Shown: positions 3,769 through 52,891 of the stretch, in pieces
Position numbering within the stretch: position 1 is the first letter of the stretch
How the letters are laid out: the number at the start of each line of letters is the position of its first letter
Assembly (NCBI GenBank): GCA_022565595.1
Contig: JAIUML010000020.1
Span: forward strand, 1-64,000
Direction of reading: 5' to 3'
Length of the DNA: 64,000 nucleotides
Origin: Saccharospirillum sp.
Lineage (GTDB): Bacteria > Pseudomonadota > Gammaproteobacteria > Pseudomonadales > Natronospirillaceae
Program-made: the position numbers and the translations under genes
The notes under the pieces: model-generated
What the model saw: only the letters and a program-made list of their open reading frames with translations
What the model was told of the DNA's origin: nothing
Database searches by the model: none

Positions 3769-4845
3769 TCAAGCGGTTGATCGTTCGCCAAAGGCGGCGT
3801 GCAGGTATTGGGCACCATCCAGCACACGCCGGATTGGCTCGGGTTTTTCTCGGCTCTGGCCGAGGCAAAGCGGGCGCCCCAATTGGGTATCCGGGTGGCC
3901 GGGAATCAGCGCCACACTGCTTTCGGGTGGCATTTGCAGCTCAACATCGAAGGCGGTACCGGCGGGCAAAAAGGCCGCGGTCAGCTCGCTCAGGGTTTGC
4001 CCTAGTGGCTGGTCGGGCATCAACTGGTTGGCTTTGTCACGGTCGACCGGCCCGGTGTGAATGCGAATGGTGCGCCCCAGTACCGGCACTCGGTTACCCA
4101 CCAGGGTGCTGTGCCCCAGGCTCTGGCCGCCGTTGAGCTGTAGTGGGTTATCGACCGAACACCAGCGAATACGGGTTTTGTCCACCGCCAGGTGGGGCAG
4201 ACCCAGGGCGCTGCGCAGCGTCGCTGCCAGGGCGCTGGCGCTGCGGTTACGCGGCCGCTCGCTGTAGGGGCGGCTGCTGTCCGGGCGCTCGTCGTGCAGG
4301 CGCTGGCCGGTGCAGGCACTGGCCAGCCGTTGATACAGCCGGCCACTGGCGCGGCCGTTGACCAGCCGGTGTTTTTTCCAGGCCGCGTGGCGCAGCTCGT
4401 AGGCACGCTGGTTGAAGATGTCGAGAAAGGCCTTGAGCCGTTTGGCGTGTTCGGTTTCGAAGGTGGCGTCTTCCAGAAAGTACTGGGGCAGCGGCGCATC
4501 AACGCCGTAAAAGCCCCCCAGGGTGACTTCGACTTCAAAGCCTCCCTCGGCAGTACGCTTCGCCCGCCGCACATCGGCTGCGGGGAAAGACAACCCATCG
4601 GACGGGCGAATGCGTAAGCGTTGGCCACTGGCGTGATGCTCAAACAGCGTCAGTAGCTGGTGCAAATGAAAGGCATAGGGCTGCGCCAGCGCACGCGCCA
4701 GAACGGGGTCATCCGATTCGGCCGACGGGGTCGTCGCCTCAGGGGCTACCACTGCATCGGGTGTCAGCGAGGCCGGGTCTGGCTCGGTGCTGACAACAGC
4801 CGTCACAGCACTGCTTTCTGGCCGGTGCATGCCTTCCACGTCCAC
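3769..4845 (-). CDS. tssG: T6SS baseplate wedge protein TssG
   Basis: TssG forms the baseplate wedge with TssE, TssF and TssK. The 358-residue frame carries family signatures: PYAFHLHQLLTLFEHH near 53-70, LRIRPSDGLSFP, then VEVTLGGFYGVDAPLPQYF and FLDIFNQRAYELRHAAW in the first half, and the conserved C-terminal region. The ATG used here overlaps the end of tssF by 43 bp; an internal ATG five codons on (MHRPESS) is possible. The N-terminal 45 residues are low-complexity (E/A/T/P rich) and not obviously conserved, so the true start is uncertain by up to that amount. Position between tssF and clpV is standard T6SS order. Confidence 0.92.
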   Translation of the reverse strand: MDVEGMHRPESSAVTAVVSTEPDPASLTPDAVVAPEATTPSAESDDPVLARALAQPYAFHLHQLLTLFEHHASGQRLRIRPSDGLSFPAADVRRAKRTAEGGFEVEVTLGGFYGVDAPLPQYFLEDATFETEHAKRLKAFLDIFNQRAYELRHAAWKKHRLVNGRASGRLYQRLASACTGQRLHDERPDSSRPYSERPRNRSASALAATLRSALGLPHLAVDKTRIRWCSVDNPLQLNGGQSLGHSTLVGNRVPVLGRTIRIHTGPVDRDKANQLMPDQPLGQTLSELTAAFLPAGTAFDVELQMPPESSVALIPGHPDTQLGRPLCLGQSREKPEPIRRVLDGAQYLHAAFGERSTA

Positions 4846-6518
4846 TCCTTGTAGCTGGGCAGGGCCACTACCCGGGTTTCAACAAAATCGGACACGCTGG
4901 CCAGGGCGCCGAAAAACTGGTGCAACACCGTGCCCATCAGGAACAGATCGCTGCGCGAACTGAAACCGCGCTCGTCGATTTCCAGCGTCATGGTGACAAT
5001 CTGGCACAGCGCGCCACCTTCAATGCGATGTTGCAGCGCCTGAGCGAGACTGCTGATGGCGCGTATGCGTTGCCGGTTGTCGAGTTGATCGGACCAGTCG
5101 AACAGGCCGAGCACCTGTTGCAGCTTGTCCGCATTGTCGAGCGCGCTCAGCGTCAGCGACATCAGGGAAACCAACTGCCACTGGTGGTCGTGCAAGGCCG
5201 GTGGGCTTTGCATTCGGCTGGGGCGAGTCAGGTTGGTGACCGCCAGGCCATCGGGTAATTGCGTCGGGTCACCACTGAACTCACCAATGCCAAACAACCG
5301 TCTGGGCAGTTGTTCGTTACTGGCCAACACATCGATGCTCAACGACTCTTCGCGGATGTGACTGCCCTGATCCACCACCAGTTGCACCTGGCGTTGGTCG
5401 GCACCGACGCGTCGACTCTGTTCGCAATAGGTGGCATCGCTGTCGTCCCGGTAGCGCATGGCGTGTAACGGGTAGTAGCGGCGCACCTCACCGGAGACCA
5501 GATCACGCCCCTGCACCCCCGTTATCCGGTACACCTCAGCGCTGCCCCGGTGCGCGTTCTCGACCCACAACACCCGGCTGGCCTGCTGGTGTCGGTGCTT
5601 GATGGGCTCCGCCTCGGCCGGGAACAGGTTCACCGCCTGAGCGCAGTTCATTTGCAGGTTGCGAGCCGTTAACTGATGGCCCGCAGGCAAAGCCACCTGG
5701 CTGTGAATGTGCAGGTCAAAGGCGGTTTTTTCCGGGTCCAGTTGATCCAGCCGTAACCCCTGAACACTCACAAAAAGGAAGCGTTCGCGGGCACAGAAAT
5801 AATCGTGCAGCAAACTGAAGGCCGCATGCTCCTGCCCCGTCTCCGGCAGCACACCGGGTTGCTCTGCCCAGTCACCGGTACTCAGTGCCACTGGCTGGCG
5901 GTGACCCCCCTGATACAATTGCGCCTGAGTATCGCCCCGCGTCAGCAACTCGAACAGGCTATAGACCAGGCCCCAGTCGCCGTGCAAAAAAAGCGGGAAC
6001 TGAGCCAGGTCAAGGTCGGCCCATTCCAGATCGGCAGGTCGCTCAAAACGCAACGCCAGGTGAGTACCGCCGTCATTGGTTTCTTCACTCTGTACCTGAA
6101 CCAACCTTAGGGGGTGCACGCGCACCGCTGTGCTGGTGCGAAACTCACAGGTTGGCGACTCATCGTCGGTTTCATGGCCTTTAACAGCCTTCAGTATGCG
6201 CTGAGCCGGCATATCCAGGGTGCCTTTGGGGTAAGCGCCCGGATCAAACTGGACCACACAGTGCGACGGGTAGTCTCGACACAAGGCCGGATGCAGTTGA
6301 TTGAGCAGCGCCTCGCTCAGCTCCGGCACACTGTCGTCGATGCGTTTTTGTACCTGAGCAGTGAGGTAGGCCATGCCCTCAAGCAGCCGTTCAACATAGG
6401 GGTCACGATCCTTCACCGCGTTCAGGTTAAGCATGCGCGCCTGCTCTGGGTAGGCTTCGGCAAAATCCTGGGCCGACTCCAACAACTGGCGCATCTCTGC
6501 TTCAAAATACTCTTTCAT
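4803..6518 (-). CDS. tssF: T6SS baseplate protein TssF
   Basis: TssF is the large wedge subunit of the T6SS baseplate, contacting VgrG and TssG. The 571-residue protein begins MKEYFEAEMRQLLESAQDFA and continues with the hallmark DRDPYVERLLEGMAYLTA and LLNQLHPALCRDYPS, the typical TssF N-terminus. It also has the FPLFLHGD and NLFPAEAEPI stretches found in the middle of the family. Length is slightly under the usual 580-620. It starts 2 bp after the tssE stop and overlaps tssG at its 3' end, so the three baseplate genes appear translationally linked. Confidence 0.95.
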   Translation of the reverse strand: MKEYFEAEMRQLLESAQDFAEAYPEQARMLNLNAVKDRDPYVERLLEGMAYLTAQVQKRIDDSVPELSEALLNQLHPALCRDYPSHCVVQFDPGAYPKGTLDMPAQRILKAVKGHETDDESPTCEFRTSTAVRVHPLRLVQVQSEETNDGGTHLALRFERPADLEWADLDLAQFPLFLHGDWGLVYSLFELLTRGDTQAQLYQGGHRQPVALSTGDWAEQPGVLPETGQEHAAFSLLHDYFCARERFLFVSVQGLRLDQLDPEKTAFDLHIHSQVALPAGHQLTARNLQMNCAQAVNLFPAEAEPIKHRHQQASRVLWVENAHRGSAEVYRITGVQGRDLVSGEVRRYYPLHAMRYRDDSDATYCEQSRRVGADQRQVQLVVDQGSHIREESLSIDVLASNEQLPRRLFGIGEFSGDPTQLPDGLAVTNLTRPSRMQSPPALHDHQWQLVSLMSLTLSALDNADKLQQVLGLFDWSDQLDNRQRIRAISSLAQALQHRIEGGALCQIVTMTLEIDERGFSSRSDLFLMGTVLHQFFGALASVSDFVETRVVALPSYKEWTWKACTGQKAVL

Positions 6519-6934: not shown

Positions 6935-6976
6935 TCGCGACTCATTTTTAAGCGTTTGACGTTGGCTAGCGCTGGA

Positions 6977-7074
6977 TACCGGGTATACCTATCCGGGGAT
7001 GTCGGCAGCCTGGACGGCTGCCGCCAAGCCCCCAGGGAAGGGTTTACGGCGACCCCGGATAGGTATACCCGGTA
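6977..7074 (-). repeat. Cloverleaf repeat, copy A
   Basis: Perfect 22-bp inverted arms (6977-6998 and 7053-7074) enclose two smaller hairpins. Read on the minus strand, the inside follows the pattern seen in the other copies: a GTCGCCGTAAACCC segment, a first hairpin with loop CTTCCCTG, a GGCGGCAGCC segment, and a second hairpin with loop GTCCAGG, then CCGACATC before the closing arm. The conserved flank ACCCGCACCGGCTA precedes it on that strand. It is the only copy inside the T6SS cluster. Confidence 0.8.
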
Positions 7075-7126
7075 GCCGGTGCGGGTTCCTGGTTTCCAAA
7101 ACTACCTAACCTCAAAAAAGCCAAAC

Positions 7127-29423: not shown

Positions 29424-29622
29424 GTCCGCACTCGCTACCCGGTAGCCCATCATAAGGGACGCTGTAAATACCTATAAGGCTCATCCCTGAGCCTTACCCT
29501 TCGGGCTCGCTTCGCTCATGCAAAAACGCTCCCGGCGTTTTTGTCCCTGTAAGCTCGGCGGTAGCCATCCATGGCTACCGACGCCCCTATGATGGGCTAC
29601 CGGGCATCGATTGCTCGCAATG
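29424..29622 (+). repeat. Cloverleaf repeat, copy B (extended)
   Basis: Outer arms at 29437-29458 and 29584-29604 pair over about 20 bp with one mismatch. Inside are the shared GGGACGCTGTAAATACCT start, an expanded first hairpin region (29474-29553) and the second hairpin GTAGCCATCCATGGCTAC, closed by CGACGCCCC. The expansion holds its own stems AAGGCTCATCCCTGAGCCTT and AAAAACGCTCCCGGCGTTTTT, with ACCCTTCGGGCTCGCT between, closely matching copy D. The flank TCCGCACTCGCTACC precedes it. Confidence 0.8.
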
Positions 29623-30020: not shown

Positions 30021-30151
30021 TGAGCGACGGTGGCTGGGTAGTCCTCTGAAGGGGCGTCGATCCCCAGGGATGGGGATCGCCGAGCTTACAGGGATGTACT
30101 TGCAGCGTCCCCTGCAGAGGACTACCCAGTTACCGGCGCGGGCTCAAGTCG
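30021..30151 (-). repeat. Cloverleaf repeat, copy C
   Basis: Perfect 21-bp arms lie at 30034-30054 and 30109-30129 except for one position. On the minus strand the inside reads GGACGCTGCAAG, hairpin TACATCCCTGTA, AGCTCGGCGA, hairpin TCCCCATCCCTGGGGA, then TCGACGCCCC. This is the canonical, uninterrupted form. It lies upstream of yciH and downstream of frnE. Confidence 0.85.
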
Positions 30152-46883: not shown

Positions 46884-47080
46884 GTGGCCCGCGCCTACTG
46901 CCACGGATGCCTCTGAGGGGTCGGTGTGAATCCATCCCTGGAACCTCGACCGCAGGATATGAATCCCTTCCATGGGATTCACCCTTCGGGCTCGCTGAGC
47001 TCGTGCTAAAACGCTCCTGGCGTTTTAGTCCGTGCTGCAGCCGCCCCCTCAGAGGCATCCGTGGCATCCGCCGCTGGTCA
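46884..47080 (+). repeat. Cloverleaf repeat, copy D (divergent, extended)
   Basis: Perfect 21-22-bp arms lie at 46899-46920 and 47045-47066. Inside are hairpins TGAATCCCTTCCATGGGATTCA and CTAAAACGCTCCTGGCGTTTTAG around ACCCTTCGGGCTCGCT, the same module as in copy B. The canonical CGCTGTAAATAC start is altered here, and a second pair GGTCG/CGACC opens the interior. The remaining 46737-46883 holds nothing I recognise. Confidence 0.7.
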
Positions 47081-47639: not shown

Positions 47640-50180
47640 TCAGTTCACTACTCGGTGGCTGGTCTGAACAGAGAAGTCGCTGGCTGGTAGGGGTTCGGCG
47701 AGGTAAAAGCCCTGGAAGAAGTCGACGCCCATGATCTTCAGGGTGGTGTAGAGCGCTTCGTTGTGAACGTGCTCGGCTACGGTGCGAATGTGCAAGTCCT
47801 GGCAGAGTTGCACCACTCTTTTGACCAGGATGCGGTTGATGTCGCTGTCGTTGAGGTGGCGAATCAGGCTGCCGTCGAGCTTGATCCAGTCCGGTCGCAA
47901 GCGTAGCACTCGCTCCAGGTTGGAGTAGGCGCTGCCGAAGTCGTCGATGGCCAGTTTGCAGCCGAGGCGACGCAGCTCGTGCAGAGTGTAGGTGAAGCGG
48001 TCGAAGTCGCGCAGGCCGTCGGACTCCACGATTTCCAGGGTGACCCGGTTGGCGTCCAGGCCTTCACGGAACCAGTGTTTCAGGCGGTCGATCAACTGGG
48101 GGTTGCCCAGATCTCTGGCGGTGAAGTTCAGGGTGAAACCAACGTCCTGATCCTTGAGCAGGCGGCAGGTCTCGTCAATCATCATCATCGACAGGCGCGG
48201 GTAAAGCTGGGTCGGTTTGACCAGGTCGAGAAAAGCGCCGGGTGAATGAATCTCCCCGTCCAGCCGCAGTCGCATCAGGGCTTCAACGTGGTGTACCTGG
48301 CCATGGCGATCGAACAGGGGTTGTACATAGGGGACAACATCGTGGTTGGCCAGCGCTTTGCGAATACGGCTGAGCCACAACAAGCCGTCTTTTTTCTGGT
48401 GTTCTGTGCTGGGCAGTTCCACGGCTCGCGCTATGGGCAGCTGATGCAGATGCGCATGCCGCCGCGCTTCCGAAGCCTTGATCAGTAAATCCTCACCGCT
48501 GTTGGTCATGTCCGGTGGCAGCTCATCGAGGTGAGCGGTGCCGGCGGTCAGCAGGATGGGCAGAACATTCTGAACCAGTCGATCGCTGAACAGGTCGCTT
48601 TGGCTTTGCAGGCGTTCTGTCAGTTGTGCCATGCCCCTGAAAAACGCCTGATGACTGCAGGCATCCGGCGCGGAGATCAGAAACTCGTTGGGTGAGCCTC
48701 TATAGAGCAAGACGGTAGTAGGCAGTAGTTCAGGAAGCGCATCCTGGATGGCCCGGCTCAGGCTGCGCAGCAACTGATCACCAACAGTATAGCCATAGAG
48801 GTTGTTGATCTGACGCAGGTTGTTGATTTTCAGGCTGCACACCTGAACGATGGGCCAGGGGTCGTTGTCTTCCAGGCTTTGCAGCAGGGCAACCCGGTTG
48901 GGCAGGCCTGTTACGGCATCGGTTTCATAGCGGCGCAACAGCTCGTGGGTTTTGCGGTCGACCTCGGCGGCGAGATCCTGGTTGATCATATCCAGTTCCT
49001 TGGCCGAGGCCTGGATCAGCCGGAACAGGGGAGCCAGCGAAGGACGCTGGTAGATCGGCAAGGTTTTAGGTTGCATCGACTCTTCCGCCAGACCGACCAC
49101 CGTCATGCTGTGTTGCAGCATACGCGTTACGCCGCGTTCATGAGAAATCTCGCCAAAGCAGTAGATGCCTGTCAGCGGAGAAACCTGAGTAAGCGGAAGC
49201 AGATCGTTTTCCGGTTGCTGGGGTGAGAAATGCAAACGGCTGATGCAATTGAACGCCAGCATCAGTTCGGGAGGCGATTCATTGAAGCGCAACGCCCCAT
49301 CGCAGACCTGTTCAAAAGTCATGGAAGGGTGACTGTAGGCAAAGCGCAGCCGATCACCGGTTTGCAGGCGCTGAGACATGCGAAAGCCACCCTGGGGCAG
49401 CGCCATCATGGGCGTGATCAGTTCTTCTTTTTCACCGCTGATGCGGATCAGCGGAAAAGAGGCATAATCGGTCCCGCCCAGTGCCTTGCCCCGGTTCAAA
49501 TAGAGGTCGTACAAGGATTGAGCCGGCTGGTGGTCCAGTTCGAACAGCTGTTCGCCTTCGCTGCCGGTCACCGTCCAGGTCGGGCCGATCTGATGCCACT
49601 CGATGTAGGACTGACTCAACGCCTTGAACTCGCTCCCGGTAAAGGTCACCGCCAGGGCATGGTTGTACAGGAAGCGACCGTCCGCATAGAGCCAACCCTG
49701 GTCTGCGTCTCTGACCCGCCCGCCGGCAACGGTCACGCTGGGGTGTGTCTGGTCCAGCCAGTGAAAAAGCCGGTTATAATCGGTGCTGTCGGCACTGAGC
49801 AGGGTCAGCGCCAGTTGTGTATTCTCTTTGATGATGGGCGCATAGAGCCGCTCTCCAAGCTCGGCCGAGGGCTCCCGCCAGGGCAACAGGTTCATTTGGA
49901 CCTGACTGTGCTCAAGCTGGACGCATTGCACCAGAACGCTATCCTGCTCAACCTTGCCACGGTGAATAAAGGCGCCACAATAGCTGCCAACCACAGTTGC
50001 CTGAGGCCAGAGGGCTTCAAACCAGGGCAGGATTTCAGAGAGGGCATCGGGGTGGAGGTTGGCAAAAACGAGAATCAGCAGTGAAGGGTTGTCTTCGAGT
50101 GTTTGATGGAGTCGCTTTAGTTGCTGCAAGCCGCACTCAGCGTCGGGGTCTAATGTGAACGCATGGAGACGGGCAGCCAT
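47640..50180 (-). CDS. FIST-GGDEF-EAL signalling protein with degenerate GGDEF
   Basis: An 846-residue soluble protein: FIST N-terminal sensory domain (about 30-225), FIST C-terminal domain (about 235-375; LYDLYLNRGKALGGTDYASFPLIR), GGDEF (about 420-560; TDAVTGLPNRVAL) and EAL (about 590-835). In GGDEF the catalytic motif reads RGSPNEF, so cyclase activity is unlikely. EAL keeps EALMRL, the Asn in FTLNFTARDL, IDDFGSAYSNL, WIKLDGSLI and FFQGFYLAEP, with ELTE changed to EIVES; it is probably an active or binding-competent phosphodiesterase. FIST domains are thought to bind small ligands. The first codons lack a clear ribosome-binding site. Confidence 0.88.
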   Translation of the reverse strand: MAARLHAFTLDPDAECGLQQLKRLHQTLEDNPSLLILVFANLHPDALSEILPWFEALWPQATVVGSYCGAFIHRGKVEQDSVLVQCVQLEHSQVQMNLLPWREPSAELGERLYAPIIKENTQLALTLLSADSTDYNRLFHWLDQTHPSVTVAGGRVRDADQGWLYADGRFLYNHALAVTFTGSEFKALSQSYIEWHQIGPTWTVTGSEGEQLFELDHQPAQSLYDLYLNRGKALGGTDYASFPLIRISGEKEELITPMMALPQGGFRMSQRLQTGDRLRFAYSHPSMTFEQVCDGALRFNESPPELMLAFNCISRLHFSPQQPENDLLPLTQVSPLTGIYCFGEISHERGVTRMLQHSMTVVGLAEESMQPKTLPIYQRPSLAPLFRLIQASAKELDMINQDLAAEVDRKTHELLRRYETDAVTGLPNRVALLQSLEDNDPWPIVQVCSLKINNLRQINNLYGYTVGDQLLRSLSRAIQDALPELLPTTVLLYRGSPNEFLISAPDACSHQAFFRGMAQLTERLQSQSDLFSDRLVQNVLPILLTAGTAHLDELPPDMTNSGEDLLIKASEARRHAHLHQLPIARAVELPSTEHQKKDGLLWLSRIRKALANHDVVPYVQPLFDRHGQVHHVEALMRLRLDGEIHSPGAFLDLVKPTQLYPRLSMMMIDETCRLLKDQDVGFTLNFTARDLGNPQLIDRLKHWFREGLDANRVTLEIVESDGLRDFDRFTYTLHELRRLGCKLAIDDFGSAYSNLERVLRLRPDWIKLDGSLIRHLNDSDINRILVKRVVQLCQDLHIRTVAEHVHNEALYTTLKIMGVDFFQGFYLAEPLPASDFSVQTSHRVVN

Positions 50181-50195
50181 ATATAGGTCGGCAGA

Positions 50196-50540
50196 GTGAA
50201 TGTGTTTCGTAAGTCTATGTTAAAGAAACCTAAAGTGAAACCTCATGTAAGCCAAATCTCACAAAAAATCGGCGGGAAAGCTTACAAACACTGGTCGGTA
50301 TACATATTGCGATGTGCCGATGGCAGCCTTTACACAGGGGTCACGACAGACCTCGAAAGACGCATGCGTCAACATAATGGCGAAATTCTGGGCGGTGCAC
50401 GCTACACCCGAGGCCGCCGACCCGTCACCCTGGTCTACCAGGAAACCCACCCGGATCAAGTCTCCGCCTGCCAGCGGGAGGCCCTCATCAAGAAGCTGAC
50501 GCGTGTGGCCAAAGAGCGGTTGATCCTGGTCTCGGCTTAA
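50196..50540 (+). CDS. GIY-YIG nuclease-like protein (UPF0213/YhbQ)
   Basis: A small GIY-YIG fold protein. The core is WSVYILRCADGSLYTGVTTD and LERRMRQHN near 33-61, with GARYTRGRRPVTLVYQE after, as in the YhbQ group. The frame is 114 residues from a GTG at 50196 or 107 from an ATG at 50217; the basic N-terminal 25 residues are unusual. It diverges from the FIST gene by only 15-36 bp, so the two starts must share a very short promoter region. Confidence 0.85.
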   Translation: MNVFRKSMLKKPKVKPHVSQISQKIGGKAYKHWSVYILRCADGSLYTGVTTDLERRMRQHNGEILGGARYTRGRRPVTLVYQETHPDQVSACQREALIKKLTRVAKERLILVSA

Positions 50541-50559: not shown

Positions 50560-50681
50560 CCGCAATGGCTACCCGGTATGCCTCTGAGAGGGACGCTGTA
50601 AATACCTCCATGTACGCTCGGCGGTTCCCATCCGTGGGAACCGACGCCCTCTCAGAGGCACACCGGGCATCCATCGCTCGA
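50560..50681 (+). repeat. Cloverleaf repeat, copy E (canonical)
   Basis: Arms at 50572-50592 and 50647-50667 pair with one or two mismatches. Inside in order: GGGACGCTGTAAATAC, first hairpin with loop CTCCATGTAC, GCTCGGCGG, second hairpin TTCCCATCCGTGGGAA and CCGACGCCC. The flanks TCCGCAATGGCTACC and CGGGCATCCATCGCTCG match the other copies. It is the clearest example of the consensus. Confidence 0.88.
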
Positions 50682-50764
50682 CTTTACGACAAGTCATGAT
50701 TTCTCAAAACAGCCAATTGCATATGGCAACAGTGGAGTTGTTTCTACTGAATGTGGCCGATATT

Positions 50765-50940
50765 GCAAGCGCCCGATGCCGGGTAGGCCTGTTTGAGGGC
50801 GTCGATCCCCAGGGCCGCTTTTTGCTCCTGCAAAAGCGGCACTTCCGCCATCCATGGCGGTCGGATAAGGATCGCCGAGCTTACATGGATGTACTTGCAG
50901 CGTCCCTCAAACAGGCCTACCCGGTAGCGGGTGCGAACCA
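50765..50940 (-). repeat. Cloverleaf repeat, copy F (nested insertion)
   Basis: Perfect 21-bp arms at 50779-50799 and 50904-50924. On the minus strand it reads GGGACGCTGCAAG, first hairpin TACATCCATGTA, AGCTCGGCGA, then a second hairpin whose stem GATCC/GGATC is opened by an insert carrying a CCGCCATGGATGGCGG stem and a GCCGCTTTTGC-type stem, then CGACGCCC. It lies 84 bp from copy E in the opposite orientation. The rest of 50541-51034 holds no coding sequence I can support. Confidence 0.85.
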
Positions 50941-51034: not shown

Positions 51035-52891
51035 GTGGCTGTGGAACATAATCTCAAGCATTTTTATATTCCTGAGGAGCAGAGCATTTATCTGCTGTCG
51101 CATCAGGATGCGGCGAAGCTGAAGGCCTGGATCAAGCTGTGTATGCGGCAGCTTGAGCGGTTGGGGTATCAGGAAATTGAATTGATCGGTAAGGGTGCCT
51201 TCGGCTTTGTCTTTGCCGGGCGTACGCCTGCCGGTAACGAGTTGGTGTTCAAGTTCTCTCGTATCAACCTGCCGCAGCATGTGCAGGATAAACTGGAAGA
51301 AGAAGCCTACCTGCAGTCTTTGCTGGATCACCCGCAAATCCCCAGGGTGATCGACTTTGTTCGGGTGGGGAAACAGGCCATTCTGGTGATGACCCGGGCG
51401 CCTGGACTGGATCTTGACGAATATGGTTTACGCCAGGGTAAATTACCGCCCGCCCTGGTGCTTAAATTGGCGGCGCAGTTGGCCGACCTGCTTCAGTATT
51501 TACGCAATCAGAGCAATGGCGGCGGCCAGGCTCGGCCTGTTGTGCATGGCGATATAAAGCCCAGTAACCTGGTATTTGATCCGGCCAGCGAAACCCTGCA
51601 ATTGATCGACTGGGGTTCCTCAGTTTTTGCCCAGTTGGACAGCCAGAATCAGTTTTTGTCGACCAATGTCATGGATCTGATGTCCTCCGACCTGCAGTCA
51701 ACCAACGCCAAACTTGGCGATATCTACTTTATTGGCGACGAGCAACTCAATGGCGGCCTGTCGTCGCCGCGCTTCGATGAGCAGGGCAGTGCTGCCACCC
51801 TCTATGCTCTGGCGTCTGGCCAGGGCTGTCGTTATGGCCGCAAGGTGATAACGCCACAATCCCTGGGCTTGCCGGTCGAGTTTGCTCGCATGCTGGCCGC
51901 CTGGATGGACGACGACCCTCAGTTACGACGTCAGGCCGGTGACTACTTTTTGCAGCACATGCCCCGTATGCGCCGCATTGTGGCGCCTCATGTTGATGAG
52001 ACCGAGTTGCCCTTGATACCGGTTTGGGTCAGCAAGCGCCAGCGGGACATTGATACCGCAGTGTACAGCTCACGCAAGTCCTTCCTGCGTCAGCAGCACC
52101 CGGATGAGACGCTGATGGACATCGAAGATGAGCAGCTCGACAAGTATTACAAGAACTACCTTCAGGGCATGGGCGAGACCGAAAAAGCCTTTGTCTCGGC
52201 CGTTAGCCGACTCGGACGCTACCCCATAGTGGGTGGCCTGGCGGTGAAGTGGGTCAGCGGCGCGGTGCGCATTGAGTCGGCCTTCAGTCTACACGACCCG
52301 GATCTGCGTCGGTCCTTTATACAGTCGGTCAACAACGTGGTAAACCTGGCGCGTGGCATCTATCGCAAGGGCACCTTCAAAGCTGTCATGTATAACGCGC
52401 GCGATACCCTACACCTGGATCGGCGTACCCCGGAGGATGCTTTTGTCCCCCCCAAACTGATGCGGATTCCCTACCTGGTGACGCCAGCGCCTCAGGGTGA
52501 GCAAGAAGAGCGCATGCACTCCTATTTTGAAGACGGTCGTGACCCGGATGAGCATCTGGTTTTGCCGGAGAGCATGATGCGCGCCATAGAAGCCCTGGAT
52601 GAGATTCACCATACCGGCTGCATCATTTTCGAGGTATTGCCGCGCAACCTGAAGATCCACAATTACTATCGGTTACTCGATGCCAGTCAGGAAGAAGCGT
52701 TTCGCGCCCTGCTCGAGCGTATTCTGGAGTCAGTGAAAGACATCACTGGTCTGGGCATCTGCGGCTTCATGAAGTTGCCCTACAAGGACCCGCGCGCTTT
52801 CGATCACATCGACCACCTGCCTGAGAAATACGCACCGGTTCGCCCAGCGACAGTGAACCCGAAGAGTTTGGCTGATCACCCCCTGCAATAG
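51035..52891 (+). CDS. Eukaryotic-type protein kinase with unknown C-terminal domain
   Basis: A 618-residue cytoplasmic protein. The kinase domain (about 45-320) has the glycine loop GKGAFGFVF (52-60), catalytic-type Lys73 in VFKFSR, an alpha-C glutamate near 88-90, HGDIKPSN (171-178) and DWG (192-194) where DFG is usual. The C-terminal 290 residues (from about 330) show no known sensor, membrane or PASTA domain; they include TEKAFVSAVSRLGRYPIVGG and a GFMKLPYKD end. The start is a GTG. Substrates are unknown; no partner phosphatase is adjacent. serA is downstream with its own gap. Confidence 0.85.
   Translation: MAVEHNLKHFYIPEEQSIYLLSHQDAAKLKAWIKLCMRQLERLGYQEIELIGKGAFGFVFAGRTPAGNELVFKFSRINLPQHVQDKLEEEAYLQSLLDHPQIPRVIDFVRVGKQAILVMTRAPGLDLDEYGLRQGKLPPALVLKLAAQLADLLQYLRNQSNGGGQARPVVHGDIKPSNLVFDPASETLQLIDWGSSVFAQLDSQNQFLSTNVMDLMSSDLQSTNAKLGDIYFIGDEQLNGGLSSPRFDEQGSAATLYALASGQGCRYGRKVITPQSLGLPVEFARMLAAWMDDDPQLRRQAGDYFLQHMPRMRRIVAPHVDETELPLIPVWVSKRQRDIDTAVYSSRKSFLRQQHPDETLMDIEDEQLDKYYKNYLQGMGETEKAFVSAVSRLGRYPIVGGLAVKWVSGAVRIESAFSLHDPDLRRSFIQSVNNVVNLARGIYRKGTFKAVMYNARDTLHLDRRTPEDAFVPPKLMRIPYLVTPAPQGEQEERMHSYFEDGRDPDEHLVLPESMMRAIEALDEIHHTGCIIFEVLPRNLKIHNYYRLLDASQEEAFRALLERILESVKDITGLGICGFMKLPYKDPRAFDHIDHLPEKYAPVRPATVNPKSLADHPLQ

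What the first reader, a model, noticed from the sequence alone, without database searches (positions are those of the whole stretch)
50560..50940. Family of six dispersed cloverleaf repeats with covarying outer stems
Six intergenic elements (6977, 29424, 30021, 46884, 50560, 50765) share one plan: a 20-22 bp outer stem, two inner hairpins with CATCC(A/C)TG-type loops, a CGCTG(T/C)AA(A/G)TAC start and a CTCGGCG(G/A) linker. The outer stems have different sequences in each copy (for example CCCGGTAT.., CTGGGTAG.., GCCACGGA..) yet always pair, which indicates selection on structure or on replication as a hairpin. Terminal flanks are also conserved: a CCGC(A/G)C...GCTA block on one side and GGGCATC(C/G)AT(C/T)GCTCG on the other. 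No transposase is in the window. I have a general impression that hairpins with CATCCATG loops occur in other gammaproteobacteria, but cannot confirm it.
Basis: partly seen in the sequence, partly recalled or inferred. Interest (0 to 1): 0.8.

Follow-up and report, generated by a model that had tools for sequence, protein, structure and literature searches.

The report
Dispersed RNA-like repeats with CsrA-type loops
A bacterial genome carries well over a hundred copies of a small folded repeat whose stem changes its letters but keeps its shape, and whose loops show the motif that the global regulator CsrA binds; it belongs to a far wider family than the one known from Yersinia, and may be a scattered regulatory RNA.

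Summary
A covariance model finds all six elements and 139 matches in the genome; 140 copies were extracted. 70 of 369 genomes of the class match a second model.

The plan: a 7-bp basal stem, a 3x3 internal loop, a ~20-bp outer stem, and a junction with two hairpins. Covariation is strong and also occurs in place: at six sites shared by two sister species, 25 of 37 changed stem pairs changed both letters and still pair.

New here: mismatches in the two long stems are polarised. That strand probably acts single-stranded, most likely as RNA. On it the H1 loop reads A-N-GGA-N and H2 reads NGGAN, with the leading A in about 60% of own copies and 31 of 32 class copies. This is the published CsrA/RsmA consensus, twice, spaced to suit one dimer.

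The core is 84-90% identical (best matches), same strand, to Yersinia YPAL/RU-2. So this widens a known repeat; it is not a new kind. CsrA binding and expression are inferred. No dedicated transposase was found.

The parts
50561..50680 (-).
   Evidence: R1 131.3 bits; R2 on the minus strand 117.8 bits
50562..50568 (-). Basal stem, one arm; pairs with 50671-50677 across a 3x3 internal loop
   Evidence: columns 2-8/111-117 of A2; covariation of helix 1
50671..50677 (-). Basal stem, other arm
50572..50592 (-). Outer stem, one arm; pairs with 50647-50667
50647..50667 (-). Outer stem, other arm
50603..50614 (-). Inner hairpin H1; minus strand TAC-ATGGAG-GTA, GGA at 50607-50609
   Evidence: sequence; loop conservation
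50622..50643 (-). Inner hairpin H2; minus strand loop ACGGAT, GGA at 50631-50633
   Evidence: sequence; loop conservation
50681..50765 (.). Spacer of 85 bp between the two elements of the pair; functional strands point away from it
50766..50935 (+). Element 50765, functional strand +, with a ~51-nt extra module inside H2; H1 GGA at 50887-50889, H2 GGA at 50863-50865
   Evidence: R1 110.6 bits on the minus strand; sequence
30021..30140 (+). Element 30021, functional strand +
   Evidence: R1 127.4 bits on the minus strand
29427..29617 (-). Element 29424, functional strand -, with a ~75-nt module inside H1
   Evidence: R1 102.3 bits
6966..7083 (+). Element 6977, functional strand +
   Evidence: R1 106.1 bits on the minus strand
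46890..47077 (-). Element 46884, diverged, functional strand -, with a module inside H2; more copies of this type exist in the genus
   Evidence: R1 59.7 bits; further copies
50196..50540 (+). Neighbouring GIY-YIG gene; its stop codon ends 20 nt before the pair
51035..52891 (+). Neighbouring protein-kinase-like gene; starts 99 nt after the pair

Best explanation
The elements are copies of a mobile or once-mobile, intergenic, structured RNA repeat of the YPAL/RU-2 superfamily. It folds into a long stem closed by a junction that holds two hairpins, each showing (A)NGGAN in its loop. The most likely partner is the global regulator CsrA/RsmA: the two loops, about 20 nt apart, would be bridged by one CsrA dimer. 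A transcript carrying a copy (read-through from the upstream gene, a leader, or a stand-alone RNA) would be stabilised or repressed by CsrA, and the copies together could titrate it. SHOWN: family, structure, covariation, strand polarity of the long stems, conserved loops, maintenance in place in sister species, very different copy numbers within the genus. INFERRED: that the strand is transcribed, that CsrA is the ligand, that the effect is regulatory, and how copies spread.
For: Strand polarity of basal and outer stems: G.U 127 vs A.C 22 over 3360 pair cells of 140 copies; G.A 88 vs C.U 18 from the same pair table; 75 copies lean to G.U, 5 the other way, 60 equal. Independent class set of 32 copies (29 genomes): outer stem G.U 17 vs A.C 2, G.A 10 vs C.U 0.

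Loops: class set, GGA 32 of 32 in both loops, the A before N 32 of 32 in H1 and 31 of 32 in H2, both Ns variable; H1 and H2 stems vary but pair. CANGGANG on the functional strand in 138 of 140 own and 32 of 32 class copies (other strand 18 and 2); of 28 class copies with exactly two CANGGA, 26 have them 17 or 18 nt apart. The class copies were the best-scoring ones, so I checked 20 low-scoring ones (41.8-70.2 bits) from nine genomes: 20 of 20 have at least one CANGGA on the functional strand and 18 of 20 at least two. Published CsrA facts: SELEX consensus RUACARGGAUGU, ANGGAN hexaloop, bridging of sites 10-63 nt apart, optimum above 18 (PMC7652899, passages).

In place: 25 double Watson-Crick replacements among 37 changed pairs at six shared sites, while the centre is 41/48 to 51/52 identical in the four equal-length pairs.

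Expression of a relative: several Ysr224 copies with different profiles in Y. ruckeri (PMC12112432, passage). CsrA gene in 38 of 38 genomes of the relatives draw, own included, and in 27 of 29 element-bearing class genomes.
Against: No expression or binding data. The exact 12-base SELEX consensus is in only 2 of 140 own and 5 of 32 class copies; 58 of 140 own copies have only one CANGGA and one has none. The one annotated RNA of the family, Rfam Ysr224, lies on the other strand, the one without GGA loops. One inserted module in H2 has the opposite polarity. Orientation to neighbouring genes is nearly free: of 44 singles in tandem context 28 have the functional strand co-directional and 16 opposite, p = 0.096, so many copies would need antisense or separate transcription. 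Two of 29 element-bearing genomes show no CsrA gene; both are drafts, one of them 98% complete. The CsrA presence test has little power, since CsrA is almost universal there. G.T wobble in single-stranded DNA could give the same polarity.
Confidence: 0.5

Rival explanations
1. Non-autonomous transposon that moves as a folded single DNA strand, like REP/RAYT or integron attC substrates. Polarity and loops reflect recognition of one folded strand by an unidentified nuclease; host regulation is incidental.
For: Copy number within the genus runs from 6 to at least 95 scored. Eight G002 sites that hold an element have no model match at the orthologous G005 region; at one of them (L162/L177) about 1.3 kb of other sequence lies between the flanks, so seven are clean. 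A Y1-transposase gene is found in the four high-copy genomes of the genus and not in the two low-copy ones. Close pairs have one fixed orientation, 35 of 35. In one search (within 600 bp) 30 clusters are +-; the two -+ clusters are one element matched on both strands, and the one -+- cluster is such a double match plus a true +- pair.
Against: The own Y1 gene has no element in the 9 kb fetched around it, and of the five loci fetched around Y1 genes of G001, G003 and G004 only one holds an element, about 3.6 kb away. Outside the genus the correlation fails: G012, G015 and G021 have 27, 32 and 19 matches and no Y1 hit; G013 has 5 Y1 hits and no match. The two low-copy genomes are sister species. 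Structure is kept at sites shared by sister species, which spread alone does not explain. Loops that match CsrA would be a coincidence.
Confidence: 0.25
2. Pairing is kept not by selection but by arm-to-arm copying (template switching or hairpin-templated repair), so the arms drift freely as a palindrome.
For: Of 25 double replacements at shared sites 13 are transversions, which cannot pass through a G.U step (12 transitions; flanks 1660 transitions to 1070 transversions). Double replacements outnumber one-sided changes 25 to 11.
Against: Copying between DNA arms should be strand-neutral, yet G.U to A.C is 127 to 22 in the long stems. The short H1 and H2 stems covary too while their loops are nearly frozen.
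Confidence: 0.15
3. Simple mRNA 3'-end stabilisers or terminators; any hairpin would do, and the loops are relics of spread.
For: Singles in tandem or convergent context sit a median 32-39 nt from the neighbouring stop codon. At 3 of 7 G005 sites without the element another hairpin folds better than mononucleotide shuffles (L165 z -5.7, L173 -2.8, L167 -2.6); the other four do not stand out (z -1.2 to +1.1), and L177 was not folded. YPAL is reported to be inserted at or near dyad symmetry and might influence stability of upstream transcripts (PMC2229807, passage).
Against: It does not explain GGA loops conserved across 25 families of the class draw, nor polarity in copies antisense to both neighbours (42 to 7).
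Confidence: 0.1

Closest known systems
YPAL / RU-2 (Yersinia palindromic sequences, 167-168 bp)
   Same: RU-2 nt 64-118, on the functional strand, matches copies here at 84-90% identity over 42-56 nt in the eight best; the printed Y. pestis RU-2 has both CANGGANG loops (PMC2759123, Table 1b passage); intergenic and multi-copy (PMC2229807 and PMC2759123, passages).
   Different: Arms unrelated in sequence; own copies without modules are mostly 115-120 nt by the model, not 167-168; additional modules; reported from Yersinia and Erwinia, whereas 70 of 369 class genomes match here. In the passages seen no covariation, strand polarity or CsrA link is stated. The 2006 primary paper is not held, so what it says was not seen.
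Rfam RF02770 Ysr224
   Same: Its model contains the element core; sub-threshold hits in 7 of 19 class loci at E <= 0.1, best 34.5 bits.
   Different: Gathering score is 70; the model starts and ends at other places than the element and lies on the other strand.
CsrB / RsmZ-type CsrA-sequestering sRNAs
   Same: GGA in hairpin loops, two sites at a distance one dimer can bridge.
   Different: Well over a hundred dispersed copies instead of a few genes; mostly one or two CANGGA sites per unit; no Rfam family of that kind was hit in the window or in 19 class loci.
REP / BIME with RAYT; CGTC-REPs
   Same: Intergenic, near stop codons, pairs in inverted orientation; CGTC-REPs also lack a known transposase (PMC3733652, abstract and passages).
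   Different: About 118 nt three-way-junction structure, not a 20-40 nt hairpin; no repeat-flanked RAYT in the loci looked at.

Membership tests
YPAL/RU-2 | Homology to the repeat sequence | tested here: met
   RU-2 against 172 copies (140 own, 32 class); at E <= 10, 111 copies hit on the same strand and 13 on the opposite; 65 alignment rows at E <= 1e-3, none in 20 plain (mononucleotide) shuffles. Core only; the arms are not homologous.
YPAL/RU-2 | Length 167-168 bp | tested here: not met
   101 of 140 own copies pass a filter of 115-120 nt; longer ones carry modules.
YPAL/RU-2 | Inserted close downstream of stop codons | tested here: met
   singles, with genes called by a simple codon-usage script. 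That this defines YPAL is recalled from the 2006 paper, which was not seen.
YPAL/RU-2 | Target site duplications of 3-26 bp | tested here: inconclusive
   No direct repeat of 5 or more at a constant offset beyond 3 of 137 copies; duplications of variable length would be missed.
YPAL/RU-2 | Target spans or adjoins dyad symmetry | tested here: inconclusive
   3 of 7 folded G005 sites without the element have a hairpin more stable than shuffles.
Rfam Ysr224 (RF02770) | Score at or above the gathering threshold | tested here: not met
   None at gathering in the window; best 34.5 bits of 70 elsewhere.
REP/RAYT | RAYT gene flanked by the repeat | tested here: not met
   no element in the 9 kb around the own Y1 gene; one of six fetched Y1 loci holds an element, about 3.6 kb away.
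MITE | Terminal inverted repeats conserved between copies | tested here: not met
   Arms differ between copies: swapped arms pair at 52%, own arms at 90%.
CsrA-binding RNA | ANGGAN in hairpin loops, at least two sites 10-63 nt apart | tested here: met
   criteria from PMC7652899. Fully met by most class copies; 58 of 140 own copies have only one CANGGA.
CsrA-binding RNA | Binds CsrA | not testable with these tools
   Needs gel shift or CLIP-seq.
CsrA-sequestering sRNA gene | Own promoter and terminator, GacA control | not tested
   No promoter scan was run; flanks show only weak motifs.

The most novel reading that the evidence does not exclude
Many gammaproteobacterial genomes carry tens to hundreds of copies of a selfish-looking repeat that is a portable, bivalent CsrA/RsmA-binding RNA: a repeat that writes neighbouring genes into the Csr regulon, or forms a genome-wide CsrA sponge, and whose stems are kept paired in place by selection on one RNA strand.
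Probability: 0.4. Interest if true: 0.9.

Novelty: new variant of a known kind. Interest (0 to 1): 0.7.

Why it matters
If the loops bind CsrA, dispersed repeats long treated as MITE-like palindromes would be a movable part of a global post-transcriptional regulon across Gammaproteobacteria, and Ysr224, listed among the 20 most prevalent sRNAs in a 2022 review (PMC9029176, passages), would turn out to be a piece of such a repeat. Even without CsrA, this is an unusually clear case of strand-polarised structural maintenance in a bacterial interspersed repeat, and gives a tested model with which to annotate it.

Tried and rejected
Rfam at gathering threshold: nothing in the window. microRNA families that appear are taken as long-hairpin chance matches. 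Link to RAYT: not supported. Target duplications: no signal at constant offsets. Phages: no match. Plasmids: one partial 60-nt match on a 1.8-Mb Halomonas record, none with the class core. E. coli: none with the class core. Copying of the arms from a pre-existing target palindrome: considered, but orthologous arms at the two most changed sites are still 9/19 and 11/19 identical and compensated, so gradual change fits better, and the hairpins at G005 sites without the element have unrelated arms, judged by eye. A fixed relation to gene direction: not found. CGTC-tagged REPs: short 8-9 bp stems, not this plan (PMC3733652, passages). A likeness to the ERIC core was recalled and not tested. PMC9788540 (Alcanivorax CsrR1/CsrR2) describes Csr sRNAs, not this repeat (passages).

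Counting choices: of 139 matches (E <= 10), eight rows were dropped before extraction (three were the same element on the other strand, three were partial rows of elements re-entered with full coordinates, two had E above 3), and nine entries, including those three, were added, giving 140. 136 of these could be used from A3. 140 is a lower bound: 13 further stretches, chosen because one search showed matches there, gave an R2 match in 11 (nine in the own genome, two in G003), none of which is among the 140; L214 is an element by eye, and L222 gave no match and was not examined. The tools scored only part of the candidates per genome: 150, 9, 12. 'Relatives' counts include the own genome.

Full report
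WHAT IS THERE. The six elements were read directly. A covariance model R1 was built from three of them plus three copies found elsewhere in the same genome by a core pattern. R1 finds all six in the window and 139 matches at E <= 10 in the 4.77-Mb genome, 134 of them at E 2.3e-7 or better (150 of 888 candidates scored). After dropping eight rows and adding nine entries, 140 copies were extracted (the rows are told under Tried and rejected). A dna search with part of the window shows further copies carrying modules; of 13 stretches fetched for that, 11 matched, nine of them in the own genome and not among the 140. The host is probably close to Saccharospirillum: a strict core pattern scanned over named genomes hit two records, both Saccharospirillum.

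ANATOMY. From outside in: a basal stem of 7 bp, a 3x3 internal loop, an outer stem of about 20 bp, and a junction holding H1 (3-bp stem, six-base loop, on a short helix with a conserved internal loop) and H2 (7-9 bp, short loop). Extra modules occur inside H1 (~75 nt), inside H2 (~51 nt) and beside H1; in the 13 stretches they were seen within elements (11 by model, L214 by eye; L222 not examined).

STRUCTURE IS MAINTAINED. In 140 copies the basal and outer stem cells are Watson-Crick in 3008 of 3360; over outer-stem positions 12-28 own arms pair at 90%, arms swapped between copies at 52%, and slid by 1-3 at 24-35%. On 55 diverse copies, functional strand, 91.5% of cells pair (66.6 shuffled), 581 cells changed on both sides (156.4 +/- 11.1), covariation score 0.622 (0.174); 0 of 500 shuffles reach the observed value on any of the five measures, and slid versions score about 0.1. 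The weakest helix is the short one at the junction (73.3% of cells). Relatedness inflates shuffle tests, so the orthologous sites matter more: G002 and G005 share six element sites with flanks 81-88% identical. Over 156 stem positions 119 are unchanged, 25 are Watson-Crick to a different Watson-Crick pair with both letters changed (10, 6 and 9 in three of the six pairs, none in the other three), one changed both letters to a non-pair, and 11 changed one letter. Of the 25, 12 are transitions and 13 transversions; the flanks have 1660 and 1070. Transversions cannot pass through G.U, so one-step arm copying remains a serious contributor.

WHICH STRAND. 75 copies lean to G.U on the complement, 5 the other way, 60 are equal; 21 of 24 stem positions lean the same way, 2 the other. 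From the same pair table G.A against C.U is 88 to 18. The polarity does not depend on neighbouring genes: functional strand co-directional with both neighbours 53:9 (54 copies), opposite to both 42:7 (42), convergent 14:3 (18), divergent 12:0 (17); 9 copies had no pair of called neighbours (genes called by a simple codon-usage script). In 32 copies from 29 other class genomes, outer stem: G.U 17, A.C 2, G.A 10, C.U 0; that alignment was fitted to the model. Against this: the junction helix is mixed and partly reversed, and over the whole class structure the count is G.U 48 to A.C 25. Single-stranded DNA cannot be excluded by this test.

THE LOOPS. On that strand the H1 loop is A-N-G-G-A-N. In the 136 aligned own copies its four fixed letters are A 120 of 120, G 120 of 120, G 121 of 121 and A 121 of 123 where the columns are filled (13 to 16 rows are gapped there), and both Ns vary. 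H2 shows NGGAN; GG has no exception in the filled rows, the last A is 125 of 128, and the leading A is filled in only 83 rows (81 of them A; 53 gaps). In the class set GGA is 32 of 32 in both loops, the flanking C, A and G of H1 are 32 of 32, and the Ns vary. CANGGANG occurs in 138 of 140 and 32 of 32 copies on this strand (on the other: 18 and 2). 75 of 140 own copies have exactly two CANGGA (58 have one, one has none, six have three or four) and 28 of 32 class copies have two; 26 of those 28 have 17 or 18 nt between them. Because the class set was chosen by score with a model that knows the loops, I also took 20 low-scoring matches (41.8-70.2 bits) from nine genomes: 20 of 20 have at least one CANGGA on the functional strand, 18 of 20 at least two. 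The CsrA literature gives RUACARGGAUGU, ANGGAN loops and bridging of sites 10-63 nt apart (PMC7652899, passages). The exact 12-mer is in only 2 of 140 and 5 of 32 copies. CsrA genes: 38 of 38 genomes of the relatives draw, 27 of 29 element-bearing class genomes.

PLACEMENT. Of elements less than 400 bp apart, 35 of 35 pairs have reader-orientation + then -, i.e. functional strands pointing away from a 35-181 bp spacer in which I saw no common sequence; 70 copies are single. The same orientation holds for seven close pairs that I picked by eye from the partial listings for G003 (five), G001 (one) and G002 (one), but the class locus L207 has the opposite arrangement, so the rule is not universal. 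Singles in tandem or convergent context lie a median 32 to 39 nt from the neighbouring stop codon. The window pair lies between a GIY-YIG gene and a kinase-like gene.

DISTRIBUTION. 19 of 38 genomes of the relatives draw, own included, at E <= 1e-4; in the genus 6 to at least 95 scored copies. 70 of 369 class genomes, 63 of 272 genera, at E <= 1e-5 with R2. In a phylum-wide draw 17 of 299, all in the own class (the tool does not print how many of the 299 lie outside the class). No match in phages, one partial match on a large Halomonas replicon among plasmids, none in E. coli with the class core. Eight G002 sites with an element correspond to G005 regions without a model match at E <= 10; one of them has about 1.3 kb of other sequence between the flanks. 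At three of the seven others a different hairpin folds better than shuffles.

WHAT IS KNOWN. Rfam Ysr224 hits 7 of 19 class loci below threshold; its consensus contains the element core on the other strand. A 2007 paper prints Y. pestis RU-2 (= YPAL); its nt 64-118 matches copies here on the functional strand, 84-90% identical in the eight best (PMC2759123 passage). YPAL is described in Yersinia and Erwinia with 3-26 bp duplications, targets at or next to dyad symmetry and a possible effect on transcript stability (PMC2229807, passages). Ysr224 copies are expressed differently in Y. ruckeri (PMC12112432, passage). I found no paper linking Ysr224 or such repeats with CsrA in the searches (listings; one paper holds both words, and I read its Ysr224 passages only); the library lacks most subscription journals, and the 2006 YPAL paper could not be read.

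JUDGEMENT. Family, structure, long-stem polarity and loops are solid. CsrA binding is the best single explanation of the loops, at about even odds. Mobility is supported by copy-number differences and by sites filled in one species and lacking the element in its sister, but the agent is unknown.

Noticed in passing
G580:C1:94413-95665 (listing; not fetched): Six matches on one strand with a spacing of about 227 bp: apparently a tandem array of the element in another genus of the order.
   Followed up: no
L165, L167, L173 (G005 sites orthologous to filled G002 sites): Where the element is absent, a different hairpin, more stable than shuffles, is present (z -5.7, -2.6, -2.8).
   Followed up: partly
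window 50766-50935, H2 module, and similar modules in other copies: The ~51-nt module inside H2 shows ATGGAT and AGGA loops on the strand opposite to the element's own GGA strand.
   Followed up: partly
Rfam RF02770 Ysr224: The Rfam model looks like a mis-bounded piece of a repeat rather than a single sRNA gene, which would explain its high annotated prevalence.
   Followed up: partly
L237-L239 (genome G608): Three copies whose inner stem and core are strikingly close to the printed RU-2, by eye.
   Followed up: no
window 4803-6518: Type VI secretion TssF gene near element 6966-7083.
   Followed up: no
window 47640-50180: FIST-GGDEF-EAL protein (c-di-GMP domains) between elements 46890 and 50561.
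   Followed up: no
G035: Nine CsrA-family matches in a genome of the order that also carries the element; the other 37 genomes of that draw have one to four.
   Followed up: no
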